Assembly (NCBI RefSeq): GCF_947331435.1
Contig: NZ_CAMZOF010000001.1
Coordinates: 1,426,001-1,490,000 of the forward strand
Direction: 5' to 3'
DNA length: 64,000 bases
Source of the DNA: Pelagibius sp. Alg239-R121
Lineage (GTDB): Bacteria; Pseudomonadota; Alphaproteobacteria; Kiloniellales; Kiloniellaceae
The notes beneath the pieces were generated by a model that worked only from the letters and a program-made list of their open reading frames with translations, searched no databases and was not told the DNA's origin. Both the position numbers and the translations under genes were made by a program. This document shows positions 17,833-32,723 of this stretch, one piece after another. How positions within the stretch are numbered: the first letter of the stretch is position 1; each line of letters opens with the position of its first letter.

Positions 17833-18267
17833 TCACATCCAATACCGCGGTCCGGAGCCGTTGCGCCCGACGCGATCTTCCGGATTGGCGAAGCGGCAGT
17901 GATCGAAGGAAAGGCATCCGCACCCGATGCAGCTTGTCAGACCTTCTCTGAGGCGCTGCATTTCGGCGATCCTTTCATCGATCCGCTTTAACCACTTGCC
18001 CGATAGGCGTGACCAATCCCGGCGCGTGGGAATACGGCCAACTGGAAGTTTGGCGAGCTCTTCACCAATCTCGTCGAGCGTCAATCCGATCCGCTGTGCA
18101 AAGACAATGAACGCGATGCGTCGCAGCACCGAGCGTTGAAATCGACGATGCCCCGAACCTGTCCGTTCAGACGCAATGAGCCCTCGCTCCTCATAGAAAC
18201 GTAGAGCGGACGACGCGACTCCGCTGCGGCGGGAAATTTCACTGATTGTCAGAACTGATTCCATCAT
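17833..18267 (-). CDS. soxR: Redox-sensitive MerR-type activator SoxR
   Basis: The 144-residue protein has an N-terminal MerR HTH (LTISEISRRSGVASSALRFYEERGLI), a coiled-coil dimerisation helix, and the [2Fe-2S] motif CIGCGCLSFDHC, with the exact CX2CXCX5C spacing of SoxR. Oxidation of the cluster by redox-cycling compounds turns the bound protein into an activator. Starts at 18267 or 18264 fit the family; the frame extends upstream without conservation. It is divergent from an unknown gene at 18406, whose promoter carries a MerR-like long spacer. Confidence 0.9.
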   Translation of the reverse strand: MMESVLTISEISRRSGVASSALRFYEERGLIASERTGSGHRRFQRSVLRRIAFIVFAQRIGLTLDEIGEELAKLPVGRIPTRRDWSRLSGKWLKRIDERIAEMQRLREGLTSCIGCGCLSFDHCRFANPEDRVGRNGSGPRYWM

Positions 18268-18290
18268 GAAGAAAAAATCATGTTTCGCTC

Positions 18291-18321
18291 TTGACTTCAA
18301 GTTCACTTTAACTTGTAGCGT
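18291..18321 (+). promoter_or_regulatory. Candidate SoxR-type promoter/operator in the soxR divergent region
   Basis: TTGACT (18291-18296) and a poor -10, TAGCGT (18316-18321), are 19 bp apart, the overlong spacing used by MerR/SoxR activators. The region holds the dyad CTTCAAGTT-N6-AACTTGTAG (18295-18318), and TCAAGTT matches half of the known SoxR box. The 6-bp gap between halves differs from the canonical box, so the exact site is uncertain. Confidence 0.45.
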
Positions 18322-18405
18322 CACATTTATTGCAGTGCTGAGCCGACTCGCGTGTTGAGCCCCAGCCGCCAGTGAACAAAGCCCAAAGGGCGAAAGGATC
18401 GAAAA

Positions 18406-18852
18406 ATGACCGTGCAGATTGGAAAGTTGCTGAAAGACAACAGCAATTACAGCTTCGTTCAATCAGAAGATAAAAAGCTGCTCCTGTTTAATTGGAAACA
18501 TGTGGCGGGGCTCAGCATTCAGGTTTTTCAAAGAGGCATTTCCAAGTTTGCGGAACAGTGCAAAAGGCATAAGCCCACCCATGCCGTGATCGATGCCAGG
18601 GCATTGGATCAGGGCAGCCCGGCTGTTGCCTGGCTGCGTTCACAAGACGTCGAAACGACTTTGGAAGACTATATGACCTGGTGGACTCGAGAGGTTTTGC
18701 CGGTATATCAGGACGCCGGTATCTCTTCTCTCGCAGTTGCCACGGGTGATCCGAATGCGCCGGGTGAACTCACAAGCCTCCCGCCGGAAGTCAGATTCAA
18801 GATGGGATACTTCCCAGATCTTGAAACGTCGTTGGATTGGAAGCCGGAATAG
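18406..18852 (+). CDS. Unknown 148-residue protein divergent from soxR
   Basis: This protein looks soluble, with no signal or membrane segment. It has alternating strand and helix patterns (LLLFNWKHVAGLSIQVFQRGISKFAEQC, THAVIDARALDQGSPAVAWLR). The shape recalls STAS/SpoIIAA-like domains, which often carry a buried acidic turn such as VIDARAL, but I cannot confirm the family. It contains two adjacent tryptophans (TWWTREVLP). Its position divergent from soxR, behind a long-spacer promoter, suggests it is a SoxR target in redox stress. No partner follows. Confidence 0.65.
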   Translation: MTVQIGKLLKDNSNYSFVQSEDKKLLLFNWKHVAGLSIQVFQRGISKFAEQCKRHKPTHAVIDARALDQGSPAVAWLRSQDVETTLEDYMTWWTREVLPVYQDAGISSLAVATGDPNAPGELTSLPPEVRFKMGYFPDLETSLDWKPE

Positions 18853-18970
18853 CGGTGCCTCCAATGTATTACAACTAGCATTAAGGAACTCCGCGTGGCA
18901 GTGACGAGAGAGGGACTCAGACGTTATGCGACGCCGATGGAGTGAAACGGCGCAACCGTGACAGTTTAAG

Positions 18971-20335
18971 CTATTCCCCCTCAGGCGCACACCAGCGGTC
19001 GATGTCGTCGCTCTCGCCGATAAGGGCAAGGCCGTGGGCGATGGAGACCAGTTCGTCGCCGGTCTCGATCTTTCCGGCACCGAAACGCTCTTCGAACATT
19101 CGGCGCACTGCGGGCACGAAGGAGCTGCCGCCCGTCAGGAACACTTTGTCGATCTCGTTTGTCTGTAATCCGGCCCGCTGCATTGCGATGTCGACCGCCT
19201 TGCTCATCTTCTGCAGGTCACCGGCGATCCAGGTTTCGAAGTCCTTGCGCTCTATGATAAAGCGCAGATCGACCGACTCCGTGGCGAACTCGAACGCGGT
19301 CTGTTCGCTGTCGGACAGGCGTGCTTTGGCATCTGAAACCGCTTTATAGAGTGCATAGCCGAGGTCGTCCTCGACCAGATCGATAAAGGTCTGCAAGCGC
19401 TCCGGCTCGTTGCTTGAGCGCAACAGTTTTTTGAGTTCGCGAAAGTCCCGCGAGGTCTTCAGGATCGAAAGTTCGCTCCAGCGGGCGAAAGCCGTGAAGA
19501 AGCGATTCGGCAGCGTGAGTTCCGCACTCATGCTTTTGTAGGTGCTGCCTTTGCCGATTTCCGGCGAGATCAGTTTGTCGATAATGTGGAAATCGAAAGT
19601 GTCACCGGCCACCCCGACACCTGAGGATGCGAGCGCGTGGGTACGCAGGTTCTTGCCATCCACTTCGAAACGCATGATCGAGAAGTCGCTGGTGCCGCCG
19701 CCGAAATCGGCGACCAGAACCGTGGCGTCGGCCGTCAGGCGCTGGGCGAAAAAGAAGGCGGCGGCGACTGGTTCATAGACAAAACGGACATCCTCGGCGC
19801 CGAACTTTGCCAGTGCGGCGCGGTAACGGGAAAGGGCGAGAGCGGCGTCCGGCTTGCTGCCGGTGAATTCGACCGGCCGGCCCACGATCAGGCGCCGCGG
19901 CAGGCGTGCCATCTGTGTGCCGGCGCGCTCACGGACGAGATTGAGGAAAGCCGCCAACAGGTCCTCGAAGCTGTAACGCTGGCCGTAGATCCGCGTCTCC
20001 GCGAAGAGAGGACTCGCAGCAAAGGACTTCAGCGACTGAAGGAAACGGCAGTCGCCCGGGTTCTCGATAAAGTGATCGATCGCCCAGGGGCCGGCATCCG
20101 ATTCGACCGGGCTCTTGGGGATGCTCTCGTCGTGCCAGAAACACAAGACCGACCTGAATGCCGAGAGGCTCTGATTGTTGTGCTCGAACACCAGGGGTGA
20201 TGCGCCGCCCGAACCCTCATTGGAAGCGGTGGGCAGTGCGACGACCGTATTGGTGGTGCCGAAGTCGAGGCCGAGGCTGGATCCCTCTACTTGCTGTCCC
20301 ATGATTCGCCGATCACGCTGTCTGGTGCTCATCAA
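18971..20335 (-). CDS. Hsp70-family chaperone-like ATPase (YegD-like)
   Basis: This 454-residue actin/Hsp70-fold protein has the phosphate-1 loop LGLDFGTTNTVVALP, phosphate-2 VADFGGGTSDFSI, and the adenosine motif FLTGGSSFVPAVRRMFEERFG. It lacks the beta-sandwich and lid of DnaK, like YegD. These proteins bind ATP; their clients are not established. ATG 20335 is used, but ATG 20302 (MGQQ) is equally possible. It stands alone between a small unknown gene and the operon at 20466-26707. It lies downstream of that operon on the same strand, with 130 bp between. Confidence 0.85.
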   Translation of the reverse strand: MMSTRQRDRRIMGQQVEGSSLGLDFGTTNTVVALPTASNEGSGGASPLVFEHNNQSLSAFRSVLCFWHDESIPKSPVESDAGPWAIDHFIENPGDCRFLQSLKSFAASPLFAETRIYGQRYSFEDLLAAFLNLVRERAGTQMARLPRRLIVGRPVEFTGSKPDAALALSRYRAALAKFGAEDVRFVYEPVAAAFFFAQRLTADATVLVADFGGGTSDFSIMRFEVDGKNLRTHALASSGVGVAGDTFDFHIIDKLISPEIGKGSTYKSMSAELTLPNRFFTAFARWSELSILKTSRDFRELKKLLRSSNEPERLQTFIDLVEDDLGYALYKAVSDAKARLSDSEQTAFEFATESVDLRFIIERKDFETWIAGDLQKMSKAVDIAMQRAGLQTNEIDKVFLTGGSSFVPAVRRMFEERFGAGKIETGDELVSIAHGLALIGESDDIDRWCAPEGE

Positions 20336-20465
20336 GAAAATTCACGTCCCGCGCAGTGGCGCCAGGGGGCGGTTCATCTCTCATATTTCCGATGTCAACT
20401 CAAGGGGATATGCGCGCGCGCCTGTGCCTCACGTGTTTCGTCGAGTTCTACAATCCGATCCGAGC

Positions 20466-21401
20466 CTATCGCGTCCTGAGGTCTCGCGTTGCCTGTAGCA
20501 TGGCCAGAATCATGGCGTCCCGCTGGGAGGAAGCGCTGATGACGTCTCCTTGACCGGTTTCGGCGGCAATGCCCTCAGCGAGGATCGCCGCGATTTCCTG
20601 GGTCAACTCCGGCGTGCCCAGATCCTCCCACCAGCGATGAAAGCTGTCGCGGTATCTGTTGCAGAATTCAGCCATTCCGCCAGATCCAGCCCCCAGATGA
20701 AAAAGCATATGAGGTCCCATAGCCGCCCAACGGAGACCCGGTCCCGCCCACACGGCTTTGTCGACATCCTCGACGGAGGCCACACCGCTGGCAACCAGGT
20801 GGATTGCCTCCCGCCACAAAGCGGCCTGCAGCCGGTTGGCGACGTGGCCGGGCACCTCCCGCTTTACCCGGATGGTTTCCTTGCCCATCTCCTCGTAGAA
20901 TTGTTCCGCCCTTTCCAATACGCCGTCGGCTGTCTGTTCGTTCGTGATCAGTTCGACCAGCGGAATGAGATGAGGCGGATTGAAGGGATGACCAAGCAGA
21001 AAACGTGAGGGGTCCTGCCAGCCCTTCTGCATGTCGTGCACCATCAAGCCGGATGCGGAGGAAGCGACGATCGCTTCGGGCGGCAGATGGGGTTCTATCT
21101 CCCTAAAGAGCGCATGCTTGATCTCCAGGCGCTCGGGCACGTTCTCCTGAACGAACTGAGCCCCTTGAACGGCTGTGCCTGCAGCAGTGTGAAACCGCAG
21201 CCGGTTGGGATCTGCACCTTCGGCGAGGCCGAGTTTTTCCAACAGCGGCCAGGCGCGAGCCACATAATCACCTACTTGTTTTTCAGCGTCCTCGGCCGGG
21301 TCATACACGTCGACTGCCAGTCCGCGTGCCAGAAACAAAGCCGTCCAGCTGACGCCAATCACGCCGGCGCCCAGAACGGCGACTCTCTCAAACTGCTGCA
21401 T
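20466..21401 (-). CDS. 3-hydroxyacyl-CoA-dehydrogenase-fold enzyme, L-carnitine dehydrogenase-like
   Basis: This 311-residue NAD-dependent enzyme starts with VAVLGAGVIGVSWTALFLARG (NAD fold). SSASGLMVHDMQ and GHPFNPPHLIPLVEL carry the catalytic His and substrate region, and VPGHVANRLQAALWREAIHL with WAGPGLRWAAMGPHM completes the carnitine dehydrogenase/lambda-crystallin subgroup. It would oxidise the 3-hydroxyl of carnitine or an analogue to a 3-keto acid. That product is the substrate type for the beta-keto acid cleavage enzyme encoded two genes upstream. The start ATG overlaps the SDR stop (TAATG). Last gene of the operon. Confidence 0.83.
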   Translation of the reverse strand: MQQFERVAVLGAGVIGVSWTALFLARGLAVDVYDPAEDAEKQVGDYVARAWPLLEKLGLAEGADPNRLRFHTAAGTAVQGAQFVQENVPERLEIKHALFREIEPHLPPEAIVASSASGLMVHDMQKGWQDPSRFLLGHPFNPPHLIPLVELITNEQTADGVLERAEQFYEEMGKETIRVKREVPGHVANRLQAALWREAIHLVASGVASVEDVDKAVWAGPGLRWAAMGPHMLFHLGAGSGGMAEFCNRYRDSFHRWWEDLGTPELTQEIAAILAEGIAAETGQGDVISASSQRDAMILAMLQATRDLRTR

Positions 21402-22156
21402 TAGAATAGTCCCGGGTTTAGCGGTGAGGCGGCAGTCAACCCGCCGTCGAGGGTGTAGCATTGGCCGCTTGCAAAGCCCGCGTCGTCGGAGGCAAGCCAT
21501 AGTGCCAGCCGGGCGACATCATCCGGTGTGCCGAAGCGGCCGGCCGGGTGCCGTTTGAGTGCGTCGCGTCGAGCCGCTGCGGGATCCTGCGCCTGCGCAA
21601 AGGCCGCATCGGCCATGTCCGTCATGATCCACCCGGGACAGATCGCGTTGCAGCGGATATCGGGGCCGTGATCCACCGCGATAGAACGCGTCAGCCCGTG
21701 AACGAACGCCTTGGACGCGTTGTAGAGGGCCATTGCCGGATCCGCGGTCATGCCGGAGATCGATCCGATGTTAATGATGGAGGCGCTTTGCTGCATCACG
21801 GGAACGAAGGCGCGGCAGACGAGAAACACGCCTTTTGCATTGACCCCCATAACGGCGTCCCAATCTGCGTCACTGCTCTCGACCACGGTTTTTTCAATCT
21901 GAATGCCGGCGTTGTTGACCAGAATGTCGAGTGAGCCGAATGCTTCCACCGCGGCGCACTTCAAGGCCTCGACCGAGGAGGGGGCCGAAACATCCGCCGT
22001 GACCCACTGGACCGAGGGACCGAGCTCATCGGGCCGCGCCCCACGACCACAGGTCATGACAGCAGCGCCTTCCGCGTGAAGAGCCTCGACAATAGCCCGG
22101 CCGATCCCCTGGCGGCCGCCGGTCACAACTGCCGTCTTGCCTTTTAACCGTGCCAT
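21401..22156 (-). CDS. SDR-family oxidoreductase
   Basis: This classical 251-residue SDR has TGGRQGIGRAI (NAD(P) binding), NNAG, and a serine followed by YNASK (catalytic Tyr and Lys). It ends with SGQCYTLDGG. It shares the phrase IQIEKTVVESSDADWD with its paralogue at 23194-23949 (IEIEKTIEETSLEEWN). The two are therefore related copies in one operon and may act on successive or stereoisomeric hydroxyls. Its stop overlaps the start of the carnitine-dehydrogenase-like gene. The substrate is unknown. Confidence 0.85.
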   Translation of the reverse strand: MARLKGKTAVVTGGRQGIGRAIVEALHAEGAAVMTCGRGARPDELGPSVQWVTADVSAPSSVEALKCAAVEAFGSLDILVNNAGIQIEKTVVESSDADWDAVMGVNAKGVFLVCRAFVPVMQQSASIINIGSISGMTADPAMALYNASKAFVHGLTRSIAVDHGPDIRCNAICPGWIMTDMADAAFAQAQDPAAARRDALKRHPAGRFGTPDDVARLALWLASDDAGFASGQCYTLDGGLTAASPLNPGLF

Positions 22157-22254
22157 CTCTGTGCGCTCCGTTTACCGCCAATTCGTTTCATTCTCTGTAT
22201 CGCCGTTCTCTGCATCGCCGCCTCGATGGAGGCCTCGATGGAGATTAATCCGCT

Positions 22255-23184
22255 CTAGAAGTTCACGCGGTCGCCGCCCTTCAGGCCCAGACGAGCCCGG
22301 GCTTCGGCGGGTGTTGCGATGCTCAGTCCCAAGTTTTCGACGATCTCACGGATTTTGCGGACCTGATCTGCATTGGACCCTGCCAGCTCGCCTGGGCCGA
22401 TATAAAGGCTGTCTTCAAGGCCGACTCTCAAGTTGCCGCCCAGCATCGCGGACTGTGTTGCAAAGGGCATCTGATGGCGTCCGGCCGCCAGAACCGACCA
22501 TTCGTAATCTCCCCCGAACAGCTTGTCGGCGATCCTGTGCATATGCATGAGGTTGTCCGGATCGGCGCCAACGCCGCCGAGAATTCCGAACACCATTTGT
22601 ACAAAGAACGGCGGTTTCACCATTCCCTGATCGACGAACCAGGCAAGATTATAAAGGTGGCCGAGATCGTAGCACTCGAATTCGAAGCGCGTGCCGTGTG
22701 CCTCGCCCAGTTCGCGTAATGCATACTCGATAGATTTGAAGGTGTTGGGGAAAATGAAATCCCGGGTCATCTCGAGGAACGCAGGTTCCCAGTCATGCTG
22801 CCAGCTATCGTATTTTTCCAGCAGCGGGAAGATGCCGAAGTTCATGGAGCCCATATTCAATGACGCCATTTCAGGGCTCGCACGCAGCGCGGTCGCCAAG
22901 CGCTCGTCGATGGTCATGCCCAGTCCGCCACCGGTTGAAACGTTGATTACTGCGTCGCTTGCCTGTTTGATCACCGGCAAGAATTGCATGAAAGTTTCCG
23001 GGCGGGGGTCCGGCTTGCCGGTTTCCGGATCACGGGCATGAAGATGGATGACGGCGGCCCCGGCTTCGGCGGCTTCGATGGCCGCAGTGGCGATCTGCGC
23101 GGGCGTGATCGGCAAGTGGGGTGACATGCTCGGCGTATGAATGCCGCCCGTCGGAGCGCAGGTGATGATTACCGGTTTCGTCAT
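22255..23184 (-). CDS. Beta-keto acid cleavage enzyme (BKACE, DUF849)
   Basis: This 309-residue TIM-barrel enzyme has the BKACE zinc motif VIHLHARD (His47, His49), INVSTGGG, LNMGSMNFG, and GGNLRVGLEDSLY with the conserved Glu. Family members take a beta-keto acid and acetyl-CoA and give a CoA ester and acetoacetate, or acetoacetyl-CoA plus the shortened acid. One named member converts 3-dehydrocarnitine to betaine and acetoacetyl-CoA, which suits the dehydrogenase in this operon. It lies 9 bp after the upstream SDR and 98 bp before the next SDR. Confidence 0.88.
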   Translation of the reverse strand: MTKPVIITCAPTGGIHTPSMSPHLPITPAQIATAAIEAAEAGAAVIHLHARDPETGKPDPRPETFMQFLPVIKQASDAVINVSTGGGLGMTIDERLATALRASPEMASLNMGSMNFGIFPLLEKYDSWQHDWEPAFLEMTRDFIFPNTFKSIEYALRELGEAHGTRFEFECYDLGHLYNLAWFVDQGMVKPPFFVQMVFGILGGVGADPDNLMHMHRIADKLFGGDYEWSVLAAGRHQMPFATQSAMLGGNLRVGLEDSLYIGPGELAGSNADQVRKIREIVENLGLSIATPAEARARLGLKGGDRVNF

Positions 23185-23193
23185 CTCAGCCTC

Positions 23194-23949
23194 TTAAAGC
23201 TTCATCTGCTGGACCTGGGCCGAGAGCCCGCCGTCGATCACCCAAAGCTGGCCGGTGGCGTAGCGTGCTTCGTCCGAAGCCAACCAGTTCACCAGGTTTG
23301 CGACGTCGTCCGGCGTTCCGTACCGGCGGATCGGATGAACGTCGCGGACCGACTGTTTGAGGGAATCAATATCGCCTGCATCCCGAAAGAAGCTTTGGAG
23401 CATTGGGGTATCGACGTAGCCGGGGCAGATCGCATTGACCCTGATTCCTTCGGGTCCATGATCACAGGCCATGGCTCGGGTCAGCGCATGCACCGCGCCC
23501 TTGGTGGCGCAATAGGCGGTTAGGCCGGGATCGGCGATGAAACCATCATAGGACCCGAAGTTGATTACACTGGCGCCCGCCGACCTTCGTAGCAGAGGCA
23601 GCGCATACTTCGACGTCAGGAACATTCCCGTCACGTTGACGGCAAAGATGCGGTTCCACTCTTCGAGGCTGGTTTCCTCGATGGTTTTTTCGATCTCGAT
23701 CCCGGCTGCGTTGACCAGAATGTCGAGCTTGCCCCAGCGTTCGAGGAGTGTTTCGAAAGCCATCTTTGCGTCCTCCTCGTTCGTGACGTCGTATCGAAGG
23801 CTGCTGATGTTCCCGGACGGCGCCTCTTCTGCGGTCAGATCGGCCGCAACAACCTGAGCTCCCTCCTTGGCAAAGCGCGAACAGATGGCCGACCCGATCC
23901 CGCCGGCGCCGCCGGTTACGAAGGCTGTCTTCCCGCTCAACCTAGTCAT
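23194..23949 (-). CDS. SDR-family oxidoreductase (paralogue of 21401-22156)
   Basis: The 251-residue classical SDR has FVTGGAGGIGSAI, the NAAG motif, and a serine (INFGSYDG) followed by YCATK, so the catalytic triad is intact. ATGQLWVIDGG ends the core. Its start overlaps the Rieske-oxygenase stop by 4 bp (ATGA), so expression is coupled. Sequence similarity to the downstream SDR points to duplication and divergence inside the operon. It probably oxidises an alcohol intermediate. The substrate is unknown. Confidence 0.85.
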   Translation of the reverse strand: MTRLSGKTAFVTGGAGGIGSAICSRFAKEGAQVVAADLTAEEAPSGNISSLRYDVTNEEDAKMAFETLLERWGKLDILVNAAGIEIEKTIEETSLEEWNRIFAVNVTGMFLTSKYALPLLRRSAGASVINFGSYDGFIADPGLTAYCATKGAVHALTRAMACDHGPEGIRVNAICPGYVDTPMLQSFFRDAGDIDSLKQSVRDVHPIRRYGTPDDVANLVNWLASDEARYATGQLWVIDGGLSAQVQQMKL

Positions 23950-25127
23950 GACGATCCCGCCGCGTTTGTCTCTGCCTGTTCTTCCGGCCCGGCCTGCGCT
24001 TTTGCATAGGCGTCCAGCAGGAGACCATGAAAATGATGCACCGCATGTTCTGATTTTCCCGAACCCGCAGGATCGTGCACGATCCTGCCTTGATTAAAGG
24101 CCGGTGTTGACATGCCGCGCTGCACGCTTTCGACCAATGCGATATCTTCAGCCTGAAGTACCTCGTCGATGTACTGGATCGCCTCCCGTTCCGCCGCCAC
24201 AGGATCCGCGGTCTCAAAGAAAAAATCGTAGGTTTCCAGCGTGCGGTTGGGCCCCGCTGGGATGATCTGCATCACGATGATATTGCCACGCCCCGGGTAA
24301 CGCATCAGACAGGTATTGGGCCAGAGCCACCAGACTGCATGATCCCGGACGCTGGCATCCGCGACCGCATAGGCGCTATTTGCGCTCTTTCCGGCTTCTG
24401 CCATATGGCTGGAATAGATACCGTGCGTGGTTACCCGGTAGGTGTCCATATCGACCAGCGTGCAGAAGTCCTTGTGTGCCCGCGGGCAGTGGTAGCATTC
24501 GAGGAAGTTGTCGACGACGTTCTTCCAGTTCGACCTGATGTCGTAGGTCAGCCGTTTCGCGAAGGTCAGCTTTTCGATGTCTGGCGCCCACTGTCGAATC
24601 TCATCGGCGAGCGCCCCGCTTTCCTGTATCAGGGGAGATGCAGCGGGATCCAGATTGACGAAGATGAAGCCGCAAAACTCTTCAACCTGTACCGGGTCCA
24701 GACAGATGACGCCGGGCTCGAAGTCCTTGAGGTGTTCCGTTTTCGGAGCGCCGCGCAACTGCCCAGTCAGATCGTAGCTCCAGGCATGATAGGGGCAGAC
24801 GATCAGCCGGGTTCGGCCTTCGCCGCGCAGGAGTTCATGAGCACGGTGCTTGCAGACATTGTAGAAGCCCCTAAGCCGGCCTTCCCGGTCCCGGATCACG
24901 CAGACGGGCTGCGCGGCGACTTCAGTTGCAATATAGGCGCCCGGTTCGCGAAGTTTCTCGCCATGGCAGACCCACTGCCAAGAGCGTTTGAAGATCGCTT
25001 CGGGTTCAATCTTCGCCCAAAGCGCTTCGGTATAAGCCTCCGACAATAAGGACGAGGAGCGTGCCGGATCAGGATCGTAACCCTGAGAAATCCGTTCGAT
25101 ATCCTGTTGAGACGGTGAAACGGTCAT
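23946..25127 (-). CDS. Rieske non-heme iron oxygenase alpha subunit, CntA/GbcA-like
   Basis: This 393-residue oxygenase has a Rieske [2Fe-2S] site, Cys93-x-His95 (NVCKHRAHELL) and Cys112-x2-His115 (CPYHAW). The mononuclear iron site is in NVVDNFLECYHCPRAH (Asp207, His214, His219). The Rieske part resembles carnitine monooxygenase CntA and glycine-betaine oxygenase GbcA, which cut C-N bonds of quaternary amines. No ferredoxin-reductase gene is nearby, so electron supply must come from elsewhere. ATG 25127 overlaps the sulfatase stop by one base; a GTG at 25130 is possible. Confidence 0.87.
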   Translation of the reverse strand: MTVSPSQQDIERISQGYDPDPARSSSLLSEAYTEALWAKIEPEAIFKRSWQWVCHGEKLREPGAYIATEVAAQPVCVIRDREGRLRGFYNVCKHRAHELLRGEGRTRLIVCPYHAWSYDLTGQLRGAPKTEHLKDFEPGVICLDPVQVEEFCGFIFVNLDPAASPLIQESGALADEIRQWAPDIEKLTFAKRLTYDIRSNWKNVVDNFLECYHCPRAHKDFCTLVDMDTYRVTTHGIYSSHMAEAGKSANSAYAVADASVRDHAVWWLWPNTCLMRYPGRGNIIVMQIIPAGPNRTLETYDFFFETADPVAAEREAIQYIDEVLQAEDIALVESVQRGMSTPAFNQGRIVHDPAGSGKSEHAVHHFHGLLLDAYAKAQAGPEEQAETNAAGSS

Positions 25128-26707
25128 CACGTCGGTTCCTTTACGACCTTAATACCATCGCTCCCTGGTACAAGTGGTGGAAAGCGGGTTTTCACTGCGG
25201 CAACAGTCCAGTCCATATGGTTTCGGACATATTCGTTCGCAGCATCTCGCGGCGGATTGAAATCCCAACTGGGGGCGGGCCTGCCGGCTGTAGATGCGAC
25301 AATCGTGCGGCGGCGCTTCTGGGAGAGGATCACGTCCCGCCTGATCTTCTCGCTGTGCCAACGTTCCTGCACGGCCTTCAGGAACTGCTTGGCAAGCCCG
25401 TCATAAGCCGGATCGCAGGCAAGGTTTATGCGCTCGTCACGGTCTTCCACCAGATCGAACAGCAGAGGCGGATCGGTGTCGCAATGAATGTACTTGTGCC
25501 GGCCGCGCCGGATCATGAAAACCGGGTGAGATGTCATCTCGGCGCAGTACTCACCGAGCGCCTCGTCAATGATACCCCTGCCGTTCGGGTCTTGATCTCC
25601 CTTGGCCAGCGGCCAGAGGGAACGGCCGTCGATCACCTGCGCCAGCTCGGGTTGGGGTATGCCGCCTTCAGACGCTATGTCAAGCAGGGTCGGCAAAATG
25701 TCCACCAGGGAGCAGGCATTGCTCAACACGCCCTGGCGAACGCCGGTGCCGGATAAGATAAGGGGCACACGCGCCGAATGCTCGAAGAAGTTCATCTTGT
25801 ACCATAGGCTGCGTTCGCCGAGCATGTCGCCATGGTCGGCCGTGATGATGATCACCGTGTTCTCGAACATGCCGGCTTGTTTCAGCGCCGTGACCAGTTC
25901 GCCGACCTTGCTGTCGAAGTAGGTGGTATTGGCGTAATAAGCGTGACGGGCGTTGCGCAGCTGCGCCTCCGTCACCTCGGTCTCGCTGGCCTGGATACCG
26001 TCCATAAGACGTTTGGAAAAAGCGTCCTGCGCGTCGTAATCAATGGTCGCCTTCGGCAGATCTATATCGGATGCCTGGTAATGATCCCACCATTCCTGCC
26101 TTGCGACATAGGGGTCGTGCGGATGAATGAAACTTGCGACCAGACAGAAGGGTTGGGTTCCGTTCCGTGCGAGATCGAAAATCTTGCGCTTGGCAAAGAA
26201 CGAAACCTCGTCGTCATACTCGATCTGGAAAGTCGTTGCCGCCACACCGGCCTCCAGGACCGAATCCATGTTGTGATACCATTTATCGATGCGCTCGGCG
26301 GGCGCTTCCCAATTCGGTGTCCAGGCAAAATCCGAAGGATAAATGTCCGTTGTGAGGCGTTCGTCAAAGCCGTGAAGCTGATCCGGGCCGACAAAGTGCA
26401 TCTTGCCCGAGAGACAGCAATGGTAGCCCATCTGTTTCAAATAGTGGGCGAAGGTTGGGATCGACGACGGGAATTCGCAGGCGTTGTCATAGGCTTCGAT
26501 CCGCGTGGCGAGCTGACCGGACATGAATGAATAGCGGGCAGGCGCACAGAGCGGCGTGTTGCAATAGGCCGCGTCGAAGCGGGTGCCTCTTCGCGCCAGG
26601 GCGTCGATGTTGGGCGTTTTGACCAGCGGATGCCCGTACGCCGCCGTGAATTGAGGCGACAGCTGGTCAGCCATGATGATGAGGATATTGGGGGGTGTTT
26701 TGGGCAT
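25127..26707 (-). CDS. Choline-sulfatase-like arylsulfatase
   Basis: The 526-residue alkaline-phosphatase-fold sulfatase has metal ligands in IMADQ (Asp13). The formylglycine motif CxPxR is in LCAPAR (Cys54), and TADHGDMLGERSLWYKMNFFEHSARVP is typical of choline-sulfatase (BetC). The C-terminal part with WNFNPP-like WDFNPP also fits. It would release choline, or a related amino alcohol, from its O-sulfate in the cytoplasm; no signal peptide is seen. It is the first gene of the operon and is divergent from the GlxA-type regulator. It lacks the usual betI/betB/betA partners. Confidence 0.87.
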   Translation of the reverse strand: MPKTPPNILIIMADQLSPQFTAAYGHPLVKTPNIDALARRGTRFDAAYCNTPLCAPARYSFMSGQLATRIEAYDNACEFPSSIPTFAHYLKQMGYHCCLSGKMHFVGPDQLHGFDERLTTDIYPSDFAWTPNWEAPAERIDKWYHNMDSVLEAGVAATTFQIEYDDEVSFFAKRKIFDLARNGTQPFCLVASFIHPHDPYVARQEWWDHYQASDIDLPKATIDYDAQDAFSKRLMDGIQASETEVTEAQLRNARHAYYANTTYFDSKVGELVTALKQAGMFENTVIIITADHGDMLGERSLWYKMNFFEHSARVPLILSGTGVRQGVLSNACSLVDILPTLLDIASEGGIPQPELAQVIDGRSLWPLAKGDQDPNGRGIIDEALGEYCAEMTSHPVFMIRRGRHKYIHCDTDPPLLFDLVEDRDERINLACDPAYDGLAKQFLKAVQERWHSEKIRRDVILSQKRRRTIVASTAGRPAPSWDFNPPRDAANEYVRNHMDWTVAAVKTRFPPLVPGSDGIKVVKEPT

Positions 26708-26796
26708 GGTCTGACGTCTCTCCCTGTCAACAGGCTAGAGGGTCTGCCAAACGCATGACTGATGTTTTTCGCCAAAAAAAATGCAATAATCGACAA
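26708..26796. promoter_or_regulatory. Divergent promoter region of the sulfatase operon and its regulator
   Basis: This is an 89-bp AT-rich gap (run of A at 26774-26781) between the sulfatase start and the chosen regulator start. It is the natural place for the operon promoter and the AraC-type binding site. No clear repeat was found. Confidence 0.4.
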
Positions 26797-27843
26797 ATGC
26801 TTCAAGGTAATTTCGATCGAGATGAACGGGCGGAAGAGGAAGGAACCTCCTGTCGTATCGGCATGCTGCTTCTGCCCGGCTTCAACTCCATGGCGGCGAA
26901 TGCCTTTCTGGATCCTTTCCGCGCCGCCAACTACCTGCGTGCCGCAACGGCCTACGACTGGCCCATTTTGTCCCTCGATGGCGGCGAGGTGACGGCCAGC
27001 AACGGGCTGACGATCGCAAAGACGATCCCGATGGCGGCGGCCGGCGCGGCTTGGGATTTGGATTTTCTCGTGGTCAACGCCAGCTGGAACCCGGAGCAGT
27101 TCCGCACCCAGCCCTTGCAGGGGTGGCTGAGGCGGCTGTCCCGGCAAGGGGTCGTGATGTGCGCAATCGATACCGGCGCTTTCGTTCTGGCCCAGGCCGG
27201 GCTGCTCTCGGGGTATCGAGCCGCTGTACACTATGAGCACATTGCCGCTTTCCGGGAGCTCTTCCCGGACAGCCTGATGGATGAATCGCTGTTCGTGTTT
27301 GATCGCGACCGGCTGACCTGTTGTGGGGGCATGGCGGCCGCCGATATGGCACTGGAGATCATCCGCCTTCAGCAGGGCCTCGACGTAGCAAACGCGGCGG
27401 GCCGCTACATATTCCATGAACGCCTGCGGTCCGGCGATGAAGGCCAGTTGCCGACCACTCGGGAGCCGGTGGGCTATGCGGCGCCCGCGCGGTTGCGGGA
27501 CGCCATTGTCCTGATGGAACGCAATCTCGAACAACCCCTGACCATCGGCGCAATAGTATCCCAGCTTGGGTTGTCTCAACGGCAGCTTGAACGCCTGTTC
27601 CGAACCCACACGGGTGTGTCGCCAGTGCGCTATTACGTCGATGTGCGGCTCGACCGGGCACGGGGCCTCGTTACTCAGACCGAGTTGCCGATCGTGGATG
27701 TGGCTGCGGCCTGCGGTTTCGGCAGCGCCGTTCAGTTCACCCGCACCTACAAGCGGCGGTTTGGCCTGGCACCGAGCAGAGATCGGATCGAGGGCCGCGT
27801 ACCGTTTCAGTTTCGATCCTTCCCCAGTCACGCTGGCGTATAG
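26797..27843 (+). CDS. GlxA-family AraC-type regulator of the quaternary-amine operon
   Basis: The 348-residue protein has an N-terminal DJ-1/PfpI-like (GATase1) ligand domain (IGMLLLPGFNSMAANAFLDPFR, VMCAIDTGAFVLAQAGLLSG) and a C-terminal double AraC HTH (LTIGAIVSQLGLSQRQLERLF, VDVAAACGFGSAVQFTRTYKRRFG). This is the architecture of CdhR, GbdR and related regulators of carnitine, betaine and choline use. It is divergent from the sulfatase operon, which it should activate. In-frame starts at 26755 and 26695 exist; 26797 leaves room for a promoter. Confidence 0.87.
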   Translation: MLQGNFDRDERAEEEGTSCRIGMLLLPGFNSMAANAFLDPFRAANYLRAATAYDWPILSLDGGEVTASNGLTIAKTIPMAAAGAAWDLDFLVVNASWNPEQFRTQPLQGWLRRLSRQGVVMCAIDTGAFVLAQAGLLSGYRAAVHYEHIAAFRELFPDSLMDESLFVFDRDRLTCCGGMAAADMALEIIRLQQGLDVANAAGRYIFHERLRSGDEGQLPTTREPVGYAAPARLRDAIVLMERNLEQPLTIGAIVSQLGLSQRQLERLFRTHTGVSPVRYYVDVRLDRARGLVTQTELPIVDVAAACGFGSAVQFTRTYKRRFGLAPSRDRIEGRVPFQFRSFPSHAGV

Positions 27844-28376
27844 ATCTTTATGCGGCCTTCGGCTGCGCGCACAGGTATCTCCAGCGGATTGCCGCCTTGG
27901 TCAACGTGTCCGCGATTCTGCTTACGCCAGCGCGCCTGCCCTTCGGATCGTGTCGGACTAAGAGGCAACCCTGAGGTTGTAACCGGCTGCGTCAGGTGTT
28001 CGGCGATCAAGGCCTAGGACTTTTGACAGTCTCTTCTTGTTACGCGTTGTGATTGGCATCGTTGGGTGCGGCCGCGAAACCTGGATGACCGAAAATGAGG
28101 TGGGAGGCTCGAATGTCTATAAATTGTGCGGTGCAACAGTATTGCGTTCACGAGAAACTCCCTTCGTAATTGGAGGTAAGGACTCGGCAGTTATCGTACT
28201 TTTCGCCATCATATCGTTTCAACTCTTAGCAGAAATTTACAAAATTCTCATATAAAGTTGTTATTTTTTGACAAATAACATATTGAAGATAAAGAAATAA
28301 TTGATTTTTTGACTGAAATTTGCTTTTTTGTTGGTTAACGAGGCGTAAGACTTCGACACTCAACGGAGGAAGCACC
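27844..28376. other. 533-bp intergenic region, AT-rich towards acs
   Basis: I find no convincing gene. The last 150 bp before acs are strongly AT-rich. A TTGACA lies at 28268-28273 and a TTGACT at 28309-28314, so one or more acs promoters are likely, though no good -10 box is placed. A long leader or a regulator site is possible. A reading frame at 28037-28255 has no family features. Confidence 0.45.
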
Positions 28377-30353
<1,977 letters not shown>

Positions 30354-30362
30354 AGATCCCGC

Positions 30363-30405
30363 CGTGCGATCGTCGCCGATGCGTTGCATCGCGAAGGATC
30401 GCACG
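30363..30405 (+). promoter_or_regulatory. Nested perfect hairpin after acs
   Basis: CGTGCGATC (30363-30371) pairs with GATCGCACG (30397-30405). Inside it, CGATGC-gtt-GCATCG (30377-30391) forms a second perfect stem. No T-run follows, so it is not a standard terminator. It may set relative mRNA levels between acs and the transporter genes. Confidence 0.55.
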
Positions 30406-30550
30406 CCCCGGATCTGTACCTGACAACCTGTATTTTGCGCCGCGGTCTGCATCTTGGCCGTGTCAGTCGAGTGGAATTCGACTGCCTGACCTCAGGCCTC
30501 AACGCCGCGCTCAAGCTGTACTGAACAACGTCACCAAAAGGAGTGAAACA

Positions 30551-30811
30551 ATGTCGGAAAAGTCATCGGCCAATGTCTACTGGTCGACAAACATCCGGAT
30601 CGTGACGGTCTGCCTCGTGATCTGGGCACTGGTATCCTTCGGTTTTGGAATCGTCCTGCGTCCTCTGCTCTCCGGTATTTCGATCGGCGGCACGGATCTG
30701 GGCTTCTGGTTTGCACAGCAGGGCTCGATCCTGGTGTTTCTGGCGCTGATCTTTTTCTACGCCTTCCGCATGAACCGGCTGGACCGCGAACACGGCGTCG
30801 ACGAAGAATAG
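30551..30811 (+). CDS. DUF4212 small subunit of sodium/substrate symporter
   Basis: This 86-residue protein has two membrane helices (VTVCLVIWALVSFGFGIVL, GSILVFLALIFFYAFRMN), SIGGTDLGFWFAQQG in the loop, and a charged tail. DUF4212 proteins are found directly upstream of ActP-like sodium:solute symporters as an accessory subunit. The symporter begins 12 bp downstream. The ribosome site (AAGGAG) is good. Confidence 0.93.
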   Translation: MSEKSSANVYWSTNIRIVTVCLVIWALVSFGFGIVLRPLLSGISIGGTDLGFWFAQQGSILVFLALIFFYAFRMNRLDREHGVDEE

Positions 30812-30823
30812 GGGAAGACGACA

Positions 30824-32593
30824 ATGGACCAATACACCCTCAATCTGCTGGTCGTGGGCGCGAGTTTTGCGCTCTATATCGGCATCGCGGTCTGGGCCCG
30901 GGCGGGCACGACCTCCGAATTTTACGCGGCCGGGCGGGGCGTGCATCCCGTCACCAACGGTATGGCGACCGCTGCGGACTGGATGTCGGCGGCGTCCTTC
31001 ATCTCCATGGCCGGGCTGATCGCCTTCACCGGCTATGACAACTCTTCCTTCCTTATGGGCTGGACCGGCGGTTACGTGCTGCTGGCTTTGCTGCTTGCGC
31101 CCTATCTGCGCAAGTTCGGCAAATTCACCGTGCCCGAATTCATCGGCGACCGCTTTTACAGTCCGACCGCACGTCTGGTTGCCGTAGCCTGTCTGATCAT
31201 CGCCTCGATCACCTACGTGATCGGCCAGATGACCGGTGTCGGCGTCGCCTTCTCACGCTTTCTGGAGGTGGACAATGAGCTCGGACTCTTCATTGGCGCA
31301 GGCATCGTGTTCTTCTATGCGGTGCTGGGCGGCATGAAGGGCGTCACCTACACGCAGGTGGCACAATACTGTGTGCTGATCATGGCCTACACGGTGCCGG
31401 CGATCTTCATCTCGCTGCAGCTGACCGGTGTTGCCTTGCCGCCGCTGGGTCTCTTTGCGGATCACGCCGCATCGGGCGTACCGTTGCTTGAGAAGTTGGA
31501 TTTGGTGATTTCGGACCTCGGCTTCAACAGCTACACGGGGCACCACACCAACACCTTCAACATGGTGCTCTTTACCTTGTCTCTGATGATCGGTACGGCG
31601 GGTTTGCCGCACGTGATCATCCGCTTCTTCACCGTGCCGAAGGTTGCCGATGCCCGCTGGTCCGCCGGCTGGGCGCTGGTCTTCATCGCACTGCTGTATC
31701 TGACCGCACCTGCGGTGGGTGCCATGGCACGGCTGAACCTGGTGGATACTATCTACCCGAACGGCCCGACGCGGGACTCGCTTGTCTATGCTGAGCGCCC
31801 TGACTGGATGAAAAATTGGGAAGTCACCGGTCTTCTGAAATTCGAAGACAAAAACGGGGACGGCAAGATCCAATACTACAACGACAAGTCCGACAGCTTC
31901 GCGTCCACCGCTACGGCCAACGGCTGGAAGGGTTCGGAGTTGAACGTGAACCGCGACATCCTGGTGCTTGCCAATCCTGAGATTGCGCAGCTTCCGGGCT
32001 GGGTGATCGCTCTTGTCGCGGCCGGCGGTCTTGCCGCGGCGCTCTCGACGGCGGCGGGTCTGCTGCTTGCGATTTCCTCTGCGGTCAGCCACGATCTGAT
32101 CAAGGGTGCATTGAACCCGAAGATCTCCGAGAAGGGCGAGCTGATGGCGGCCCGTGTCGCTATGGCAGTCGCGATTGCTGTGGCCACCTATCTCGGCCTC
32201 AATCCACCGGGATTTGCCGCACAGACTGTGGCCCTGGCCTTTGGTTTGGCGGCAGCTTCGATTTTCCCGGCTCTCATGATGGGGATCTTCTCGAAGCGGG
32301 TGAACAACATCGGTGCGGTCCTTGGTATGCTGTCAGGTCTGATCTTCACGCTGGTCTACATCTTCTCCTATAAGGGCTGGCTGTTCATTCCGGGCACCAA
32401 CTTCCTGGCCGACACGCCGGAGAACTGGATCCTGGGCATCTCGCCACTCTCAATCGGCGCGGTCGGTGCGGTGATCAACTTTGCAGTCGCCATTACGGTG
32501 TCTCGCATGACCGAAGAGCCGCCTGAGGAAATCCAGGAACTGGTCGAAAGCATCCGCGTGCCTCGCGGTGCGGGAGCGGCCACCACGCACTAA
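30824..32593 (+). CDS. Cation/acetate symporter, sodium:solute symporter family (ActP-like)
   Basis: The 589-residue SSS-family transporter has about 13 membrane helices. FYAAGRGVHPVTNGMATAADWMSAASFISMAG in the first helices carries the Na+/substrate region; TAGLPHVIIRFFTVP and AALSTAAGLLLAISSAVSHD are family motifs. A hydrophilic insert at about residues 325-375 is characteristic of this DUF4212-linked form. It takes up acetate or other short acids for Acs. Confidence 0.93.
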   Translation: MDQYTLNLLVVGASFALYIGIAVWARAGTTSEFYAAGRGVHPVTNGMATAADWMSAASFISMAGLIAFTGYDNSSFLMGWTGGYVLLALLLAPYLRKFGKFTVPEFIGDRFYSPTARLVAVACLIIASITYVIGQMTGVGVAFSRFLEVDNELGLFIGAGIVFFYAVLGGMKGVTYTQVAQYCVLIMAYTVPAIFISLQLTGVALPPLGLFADHAASGVPLLEKLDLVISDLGFNSYTGHHTNTFNMVLFTLSLMIGTAGLPHVIIRFFTVPKVADARWSAGWALVFIALLYLTAPAVGAMARLNLVDTIYPNGPTRDSLVYAERPDWMKNWEVTGLLKFEDKNGDGKIQYYNDKSDSFASTATANGWKGSELNVNRDILVLANPEIAQLPGWVIALVAAGGLAAALSTAAGLLLAISSAVSHDLIKGALNPKISEKGELMAARVAMAVAIAVATYLGLNPPGFAAQTVALAFGLAAASIFPALMMGIFSKRVNNIGAVLGMLSGLIFTLVYIFSYKGWLFIPGTNFLADTPENWILGISPLSIGAVGAVINFAVAITVSRMTEEPPEEIQELVESIRVPRGAGAATTH

Positions 32594-32608
32594 GTCACTT
32601 CGTGCAGC

Positions 32609-32641
32609 CGGCAGGCGTCATGGAGCAGCAGACGCCTGCCG
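32609..32641 (+). promoter_or_regulatory. First of two tandem hairpins between actP-like gene and CBS gene
   Basis: CGGCAGGCGTC (32609-32619) and GACGCCTGCCG (32631-32641) form a perfect 11-bp stem with an 11-nt loop. No T-run follows. Together with the next hairpin it probably acts on mRNA ends or partial termination between two parts of the operon. Confidence 0.6.
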
Positions 32642-32647
32642 TATTAC

Positions 32648-32679
32648 GATGCAGCCCTCGTCCCACAGAGGGCTGCATC
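32648..32679 (+). promoter_or_regulatory. Second tandem hairpin before the CBS/DUF294 gene
   Basis: GATGCAGCCCTC (32648-32659) and GAGGGCTGCATC (32668-32679) form a perfect 12-bp stem with an 8-nt loop, 6 bp after the previous hairpin. The following bases are C-rich, not T-rich. A GGAGGATCC stretch with the gene's ribosome site follows. Confidence 0.6.
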
Positions 32680-32723
32680 CCCTCCCTTCCAGGAGGATCC
32701 AGGTTCGAACCCAAGGGTTAGAC

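What the first reader, a model, noticed from the sequence alone, without database searches (positions are those of the whole stretch)
20466..27843. Sulfatase-Rieske-BKACE-carnitine-dehydrogenase operon: a possible new route for a sulfated quaternary amine
Six genes are packed with overlaps: choline-sulfatase-like enzyme, CntA/GbcA-like Rieske oxygenase, two paralogous SDRs, a beta-keto acid cleavage enzyme and a carnitine-dehydrogenase-like enzyme. A GlxA/AraC regulator like CdhR or GbdR is divergent. Known carnitine operons have dehydrogenase, BKACE and a thioesterase, but not a sulfatase plus Rieske plus SDR pair, and no thioesterase is seen here. A sulfate ester of carnitine, or a hydroxylated analogue, could be the substrate.
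Basis: partly seen in the sequence, partly recalled or inferred. Interest (0 to 1): 0.75.

Follow-up and report, generated by a model that had tools for sequence, protein, structure and literature searches.

The report
Sulfated-betaine catabolism operon, probably carnitine-like
A conserved bacterial gene cluster seems to strip sulfate from, and then break down, a carnitine-like nitrogen compound whose exact identity is unknown; the sulfate-removing enzyme is a distinct variant of choline-sulfatase.

Summary
Six intact, closely packed genes (20466-26707, minus strand) encode a choline-sulfatase-family enzyme, a CntA-like Rieske oxygenase, two paralogous SDRs, a BKACE and a carnitine-dehydrogenase-like enzyme, with a divergent GbdR-like regulator. 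The set recurs, mainly in Alphaproteobacteria and also on plasmids. Among 58 related loci with room on both sides, SDR1 is in 57, SDR2 54, CDH 49, BKACE 37, sulfatase 36 and an added aldehyde dehydrogenase 30; a rhizobial clade lacks the sulfatase. Operon sulfatases form one clade. They keep the quaternary-ammonium clamp but carry Lys142 and Trp499 (46 of 46). Choline-sulfatases compared here have Trp, Thr or Ser at 142 and Leu at 499, so I predict a sulfated quaternary amine with an extra acidic group. The Rieske has the clade Va signature. The same genome has a canonical carnitine operon 50 kb away, and this BKACE and CDH are not of the canonical carnitine type, so plain L-carnitine is unlikely as the dedicated substrate. 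Substrate, order of steps and fate of the trimethylammonium group are inferred, and the evidence on the last point conflicts.

The parts
25127..26707 (-). Sulfatase of the choline-sulfatase family (526 aa), CAPAR formylglycine motif, no obvious N-terminal signal (by eye); K142/W499 (S. meliloti numbering)
23946..25130 (-). Rieske oxygenase alpha subunit (394 aa), group V, clade Va signature F203, Cys pair C206/C209
23194..23949 (-). SDR1, classical short-chain dehydrogenase (251 aa), Ser-Tyr-Lys kept
22255..23184 (-). BKACE (309 aa), 3,5-dioxohexanoate class, zinc and catalytic residues kept, His at position 18
21401..22156 (-). SDR2, paralogue of SDR1 (251 aa)
20466..21401 (-). CDH: carnitine-dehydrogenase/lambda-crystallin-like 3-hydroxy acid dehydrogenase (311 aa)
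26797..27843 (+). Divergent GlxA/AraC regulator (348 aa), GbdR-like, below the GbdR cut-off
26708..26796 (.). 89-base divergent intergenic region, presumed promoter region (inferred, not tested)

Best explanation
A catabolic operon for a hydroxylated, carboxylated quaternary ammonium compound (carnitine-like, but probably not plain L-carnitine) that some bacteria, mostly of marine origin by their names, also meet as its O-sulfate ester. Proposed steps: (1) uptake by a betaine-type ABC transporter, beside the operon in some relatives, not in the window operon; (2) the sulfatase removes sulfate, with the trimethylammonium held by the choline clamp and a carboxylate by Lys142; (3) the Rieske enzyme oxidises a carbon next to nitrogen, most likely breaking the C-N bond to give trimethylamine and a hydroxy-aldehyde acid; (4) the two SDRs adjust alcohol and aldehyde groups; (5) CDH oxidises a 3-hydroxyl to a beta-keto acid; (6) BKACE and acetyl-CoA split it into acetoacetate and an acyl-CoA, hydrolysed by a thioesterase encoded nearby in a few relatives. 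Shown by sequence: families, kept catalytic residues, recurrent linkage, pocket changes. Inferred: substrate identity, step order, C-N cleavage rather than another oxidation, and the role of Lys142.
For: Linkage in 58 of 80 loci with room; a core of transporter + Rieske + SDR1 + SDR2 without CDH, BKACE or ALDH hits in 20 kb of G331. Sulfatase: C54, N75, K102, H104, Y123, W129, W143, Y144, H145, N146, H201, K309, E386 46 of 46, and K142 and W499 46 of 46, also in 5 of 5 plasmid copies. Of 30 other choline-sulfatase-like sequences none has K142. PMC9063841 (passages) lists Trp142 and Leu499 among tunnel residues. One clade, SH-aLRT 100, with a long-branch warning. Rieske: F203, E205, C206, C209, H208, H213, D323, Y225, Y295 each 80 of 80; clade Va as in PMC7948474 (passages). 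BKACE keeps H49, H51, E171, Y173, R254, E258 43 of 43, with H18 43 of 43 where BKACEs of the genome's carnitine locus and of a carnitine-like locus have E and D. A Pseudomonas plasmid copy adds a PDR/VanB oxidoreductase (plausible Rieske reductase), a thioesterase and a choline-type binding protein.
Against: Position 142 varies among choline-sulfatases (W, T or S), so Lys there is a change at a soft position. The relatives' ALDH (30 of 58 loci; one representative tested) is of the aminobutyraldehyde class (661 bits, cut-off 615; nearest structures betaine- and gamma-aminobutyraldehyde enzymes), which suggests an aldehyde that still carries an ammonium group; the plasmid thioesterase resembles the thioesterase domain of carnitine dehydrogenase fusions. 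Both argue against early loss of trimethylamine. BKACE is absent from 21 of 58 loci and changes 17 times on the Rieske tree. Transporter binding proteins of 5 sulfatase-positive and 10 sulfatase-free loci show no change that reads as sulfate recognition. No sulfated carnitine was found in print. G331 has the sulfatase type away from its Rieske locus.
Confidence: 0.43

Rival explanations
1. The quaternary nitrogen is kept to the end: the Rieske or an SDR oxidises an alcohol or a chain carbon, ALDH makes the carboxylate, CDH makes a dehydrocarnitine-like beta-keto acid, BKACE and the thioesterase release a betaine.
For: ALDH class for cationic aldehydes; thioesterase matching the thioesterase part of the CDH fusion model (112 bits) in the Pseudomonas plasmid copy, weaker homologues near L052, L059 and L071; CDH belongs to the carnitine-dehydrogenase family.
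Against: BKACE has His18 43 of 43, where the genome's carnitine locus L100 has Glu and the carnitine-like locus L102 Asp; it scores 519 bits with the 3,5-dioxohexanoate model against 213 and 202 bits for those two. Nine of 58 loci lack CDH and 21 lack BKACE.
Confidence: 0.3
2. It is a second carnitine operon: carnitine O-sulfate (or D-carnitine) is desulfated or oxidised to dehydrocarnitine and follows the known carnitine route.
For: The O-C-C-N spacing of carnitine equals that of choline, so a choline-sulfatase could evolve to it (chemistry, inference); the Rieske keeps Y225 and Y295, which contact carnitine in CntA.
Against: A carnitine 3-dehydrogenase-thioesterase (681 bits, cut-off 592) with its own BKACE and regulator sits 50 kb away. 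This CDH is below the carnitine cut-offs (one of the two models is for the longer fusion). Neither the Rieske nor the SDR pair is needed for that route.
Confidence: 0.12
3. The sulfatase is simply a choline-sulfatase, and the rest handles an unrelated quaternary amine or polyhydroxy acid.
For: It passes the choline-sulfatase cut-off (686 vs 433 bits); position 142 varies in other choline-sulfatases; the sulfatase comes and goes (12 changes on the Rieske tree); BKACE plus SDR is the proposed deoxyribonate module (PMC6365646, passages).
Against: Invariant K142/W499 (46 of 46); Leu499 in 22 of 23 hairpin-bearing comparators (the exception has Glu); the genome has another, canonical choline-sulfatase next to a choline-sulfate-type regulator; the 5 plasmid records with a sulfatase of at least 60% identity all have it next to this Rieske.
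Confidence: 0.15

Closest known systems
Choline-O-sulfatase BetC (S. meliloti, 6fny/7pth)
   Same: Family, formylglycine site, quaternary-ammonium clamp, C-terminal domain; above the TIGR03417 cut-off
   Different: K142, W499 and A128 invariant in the operon set; separate clade; other gene neighbours
CntA/CntB carnitine monooxygenase (A. baumannii, 6y8j)
   Same: Group V Rieske, aromatic residue at 203, Cys pair, Y225 and Y295
   Different: F258H, N270M, F319L, Y315 to L/I/V; about 35% identity; no CntB-type reductase among the six operon genes; different partners than the malic semialdehyde/D-malate route (PMC11353897, abstract and passages)
Canonical bacterial L-carnitine operon (CDH-thioesterase, BKACE, GlxA-type regulator)
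   Same: CDH plus BKACE plus GlxA-family regulator
   Different: Adds sulfatase, Rieske and two SDRs; divergent CDH and another BKACE class; the canonical copy is present separately
Deoxyribonate oxidation cluster (PMC6365646, passages seen)
   Same: SDR plus BKACE, proposed to give acetoacetate and a hydroxyacyl-CoA
   Different: No quaternary-amine genes in the passages seen; homology of this BKACE to that enzyme was not measured here
SAR11 Arctic island with CDH, BKACE, BBOX, ALDH (PMC12421898, passages seen)
   Same: Quaternary-amine island with CDH, BKACE, ALDH and betaine transporter
   Different: Uses gamma-butyrobetaine dioxygenases; the words Rieske and sulfatase occur 0 times in its text

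Membership tests
Choline-sulfatase (BetC) | TIGR03417 equivalog score and C-terminal choline-sulfatase domain | tested here: met
   686 bits vs 433; PF12411
Choline-sulfatase (BetC) | Quaternary-ammonium clamp W129/H145 and hairpin WYHN | tested here: met
   46 of 46 and window
Choline-sulfatase (BetC) | Tunnel residue Leu499 (near the choline methyls in PMC9063841) | tested here: not met
   W499 in window and 46 of 46; Leu in 22 of 23 comparators with the hairpin. Position 142 is not diagnostic on its own: W, L, T, S or a gap in comparators, K only in the operon type
Choline-sulfatase (BetC) | Activity on choline-O-sulfate | not testable with these tools
   needs enzyme assay
Group Va Rieske oxygenase (quaternary amine) | Aromatic residue at position 203, bridging Glu205, iron ligands | tested here: met
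   F203, E205, H208, H213, D323 80 of 80; definition from PMC7948474
CntA carnitine monooxygenase | Carnitine pocket Y203, Y225, F258, N270, Y295, Y315, F319 | tested here: not met
   Y225 and Y295 kept; Y203F, F258H, N270M, Y315L/I/V, F319L
Carnitine 3-dehydrogenase | Score over NCBIfam cut-offs | tested here: not met
   277 of 414 and 241 of 592
BKACE | Zinc ligands and catalytic Glu, Tyr, Arg | tested here: met
   H49, H51, E258, E171, Y173, R254 43 of 43; which residues bind zinc is recalled, E171, Y173 and R254
Dehydrocarnitine-type BKACE | Acidic residue at position 18 as in the genome's carnitine-locus BKACE | tested here: not met
   His18 43 of 43; E in L100, D in L102. That this residue contacts the cation in Kce is recalled, not from a call
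GbdR regulator | NF052371 cut-off | tested here: not met
   261 of 480 bits

The most novel reading that the evidence does not exclude
The operon degrades a sulfated, carboxylated hydroxybetaine not yet described as a natural metabolite, met as the sulfate ester in the sea and unsulfated on land; its sulfatase founds a subfamily specific for such esters, and its Rieske, SDR pair and BKACE form a route different from the known carnitine pathways.
Probability: 0.33. Interest if true: 0.78.

Novelty: new variant of a known kind. Interest (0 to 1): 0.55.

Why it matters
In the five annotated plasmid copies that have it, the sulfatase is named betC and the rest bear generic names, so a recurrent quaternary-amine pathway is hidden. 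If the reading is right, it predicts a sulfated carnitine-like osmolyte, a carbon, nitrogen and sulfur source and possibly a source of trimethylamine. It also warns that choline-sulfatase annotation includes a subfamily that may have another specificity, recognisable by Lys142 with Trp499.

Tried and rejected
Substrate candidates weighed on chemistry alone and not supported: choline-O-sulfate as the only substrate (too short for CDH and BKACE), gonyol, betaine-lipid head groups, trimethyl-hydroxylysine, 2-deoxy sugar acids. These compound names are recalled.

Neighbour genes as a clue: DAO/GCV_T genes and others near some operons were scanned and looked like local neighbours. An MTTB methyltransferase directly after SDR2 in one locus (L018) is suggestive only. 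For the transporter comparison 13 sulfatase-free loci were given and 3 gave no hit; L154 and L157 were counted as sulfatase-free from their stretch alone. An MR_MLE dehydratase and a HIBADH-type dehydrogenase lie beside the G331 sulfatase; among L011-L090 only L073 gave MR_MLE hits (25-27%). Rfam found nothing in 18000-34000. A first automatic gene call mislabelled antisense ORFs of BKACE and ALDH and was replaced by tblastn. Structure prediction was not run.

Literature searches on the operon or a sulfated carnitine. Searches found nothing; some lists were capped (20 of 56, 20 of 129, 10 of 71, 12 of 23). None of the listed titles and abstract starts describes the operon; most subscription papers are not held.

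Six more from plasmids show Trp, Thr, Ser or a gap. I lowered the best explanation from 0.45 to 0.43 and the novel case from 0.35 to 0.33, and raised the choline-sulfatase rival from 0.13 to 0.15.
Full report
What is there. Six intact genes run on the minus strand from 26707 to 20466: sulfatase, Rieske oxygenase, SDR1, BKACE, SDR2 and a carnitine-dehydrogenase-like enzyme (CDH); a GlxA/AraC regulator is divergent. Two junctions overlap by four bases, one by one base; two have gaps of 9 and 98 bases. Residues expected to be catalytic (expectation recalled) are kept in the orthologues checked: CDH Ser, His, Glu, Asn in 57 of 57, SDR1 Asn/Ser/Tyr/Lys in 74 of 74, SDR2 in 64 of 64, Rieske cluster Cys and His in 80 of 80.

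Is it more than chance. A scan of genome contigs with the Rieske protein found 530 encoding stretches, of which the best 80 were kept, so the sample is biased to close orthologues (67-79% identity in the best segment). In 58 of the 80 there was room on both sides (at least 2.8 kb before and 7 kb after the Rieske). Within 9.5 kb of the Rieske in these 58, SDR1 occurs in 57, SDR2 in 54, CDH in 49, the regulator in 48, BKACE in 37, sulfatase in 36, ALDH in 30 and a ferredoxin reductase in 8; all six window gene types in 19. Sulfatase and ferredoxin reductase never occur together (36 with the first only, 8 with the second only, 14 with neither). In plasmids, 10 of 939 matching records have the Rieske at 60-80% identity and 5 of 682 matching records have the sulfatase at that level; these five are among the ten, with the two genes side by side. 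The operon is patchy: 4 of 23 family genomes at E 1e-100 and 3 of 289 class genomes at E 1e-120, the window's own genome counted in each. A Pseudomonas conjugative plasmid carries a sulfatase-free copy beside an IS6 transposase, which points to lateral transfer.

Core and modules. The smallest unit seen with long flanks is a betaine-type ABC transporter, Rieske, SDR1 and SDR2 in G331 (20 kb). G038 shows transporter, Rieske and one SDR hit, and G198 a PROW hit, Rieske and one SDR hit on a contig that ends nearby, so absence cannot be claimed there. On the Rieske tree, built by a short search, CDH changes 4 times, sulfatase 12 (shuffled mean 17.9; 2 of 500 shuffles as low), ALDH 14 and BKACE 17. 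A rhizobial clade of 10 rows (SH-aLRT 99) has no sulfatase in the 8 rows that could be counted. I read this as a core that starts on the unsulfated compound, an optional desulfation step and an optional carbon-recovery set (inference).

Sulfatase. It passes the choline-sulfatase cut-off (686 vs 433 bits). Numbered by the S. meliloti enzyme, the formylglycine cysteine, sulfate ligands and quaternary-ammonium clamp are kept in 46 of 46 operon orthologues, and 142 is K, 499 is W and 128 is A in 46 of 46, while 500 is T in 40 of 46. Comparators: of 24 from the window's family and genome, 17 have W142 and L499, one (L130) has L142 and L499, and six lack the hairpin so that these positions cannot be compared safely; one of the six (L109) showed W at 499 in one of two alignments. 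Of six from plasmids of other groups, two have W142, two S, one T and one a gap; L499 in five of six, E in the sixth. So K142 is seen only in the operon type, but at a position that varies, while W499 replaces a well-kept Leu. PMC9063841 (abstract and passages) places Trp142 and Leu499 in the substrate tunnel. The 47 operon sulfatases, window included, are one side of a branch with SH-aLRT 100, though the tool warns of long branches. The genome also has a canonical choline-sulfatase next to a regulator of the choline-sulfate type (262 of 325 bits, below its cut-off). One exception to linkage: in G331 the K142/W499 type sits beside an MR_MLE dehydratase, and that genome's Rieske core is on another contig.

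Rieske. The nearest structure is CntA. F203, Glu205, the Cys pair 206/209, the iron ligands, Y225 and Y295 are kept 80 of 80; F258 is H, N270 is M, F319 is L in 80 of 80, and Y315 is L, I or V. An aromatic residue at 203 marks clade Va, with carnitine, choline and benzalkonium oxygenases, against the demethylating clade Vb (PMC7948474, abstract and passages); the Cys pair is found in some group V members (PMC10952381, passages). This favours oxidation of a chain carbon over N-demethylation.

BKACE, CDH, ALDH, thioesterase. The BKACE passes the 3,5-dioxohexanoate model (519 vs 430 bits) and carries His18 in 43 of 43, where the BKACE of the genome's carnitine locus (L100) has Glu and that of a carnitine-like locus (L102, whose CDH is below the cut-off) has Asp. 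BKACE15 of that class uses neutral beta-keto acids and malonate semialdehyde (PMC11961710, passages). The window CDH is below both carnitine cut-offs. The genome's carnitine 3-dehydrogenase-thioesterase (681 vs 592 bits) lies at C1:1502510-1503988, 50 kb from the operon and outside the window. The relatives' ALDH, one representative tested, is of the aminobutyraldehyde class. A thioesterase like that of the carnitine fusion follows the operon in the Pseudomonas plasmid, with 31-33% homologues near L052, L059 and L071. BKACE class and Rieske clade speak for loss of trimethylamine before cleavage; ALDH class and thioesterase speak for keeping the quaternary nitrogen. I keep both models, the first slightly ahead.

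Print. No paper seen in the held library describes the operon (searches, some lists capped); sulfated-carnitine terms gave one unrelated paper. A SAR11 island with CDH, BKACE, ALDH and dioxygenases is the nearest described thing that I saw (PMC12421898, passages).

Verdict. This is a real, recurrent catabolic operon without an assignment that I could find, a new variant of quaternary-amine catabolism, with a residue-level prediction that can be tested directly.

Noticed in passing
L034 (record titled Oceanobacillus sp. HTM 045): Carries the operon typical of Alphaproteobacteria (Rieske 72%) in 69.8% GC DNA; the label or the assembly is probably wrong.
   Followed up: partly
G000 C1:1502510-1504960 (L100:12510-14960): Carnitine 3-dehydrogenase-thioesterase and BKACE just outside the window, with a regulator and a Rieske gene beside them.
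   Followed up: yes
G000 C7:120713-121833 (L107): A further CDH homologue (41%) next to a BKACE fragment that holds a stop codon: possibly a decayed copy.
   Followed up: no
L097:12724-22543: Conjugative Antarctic Pseudomonas plasmid carries a sulfatase-free operon with a PDR-family oxidoreductase and a thioesterase next to an IS6 transposase.
   Followed up: partly
L159:7956-11748: Operon-type sulfatase (K142/W499) next to an MR_MLE dehydratase and a HIBADH-type dehydrogenase, away from the Rieske core of the same genome.
   Followed up: partly
window 28320-34550: Acetyl-CoA synthetase, SSF symporter (ActP-like by recall) and a long ORF with CBS-like sequence (by eye) lie next to the operon on the plus strand.
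   Followed up: no
L018:6222-7823: MTTB-family methyltransferase (721 bits) directly after SDR2.
   Followed up: no
L169 (Azospirillum argentinense betC): Annotated choline-sulfatase with altered hairpin (gap at 142, S144, H146) and Glu at 499 beside a taurine dioxygenase gene: another possible specificity variant.
   Followed up: no
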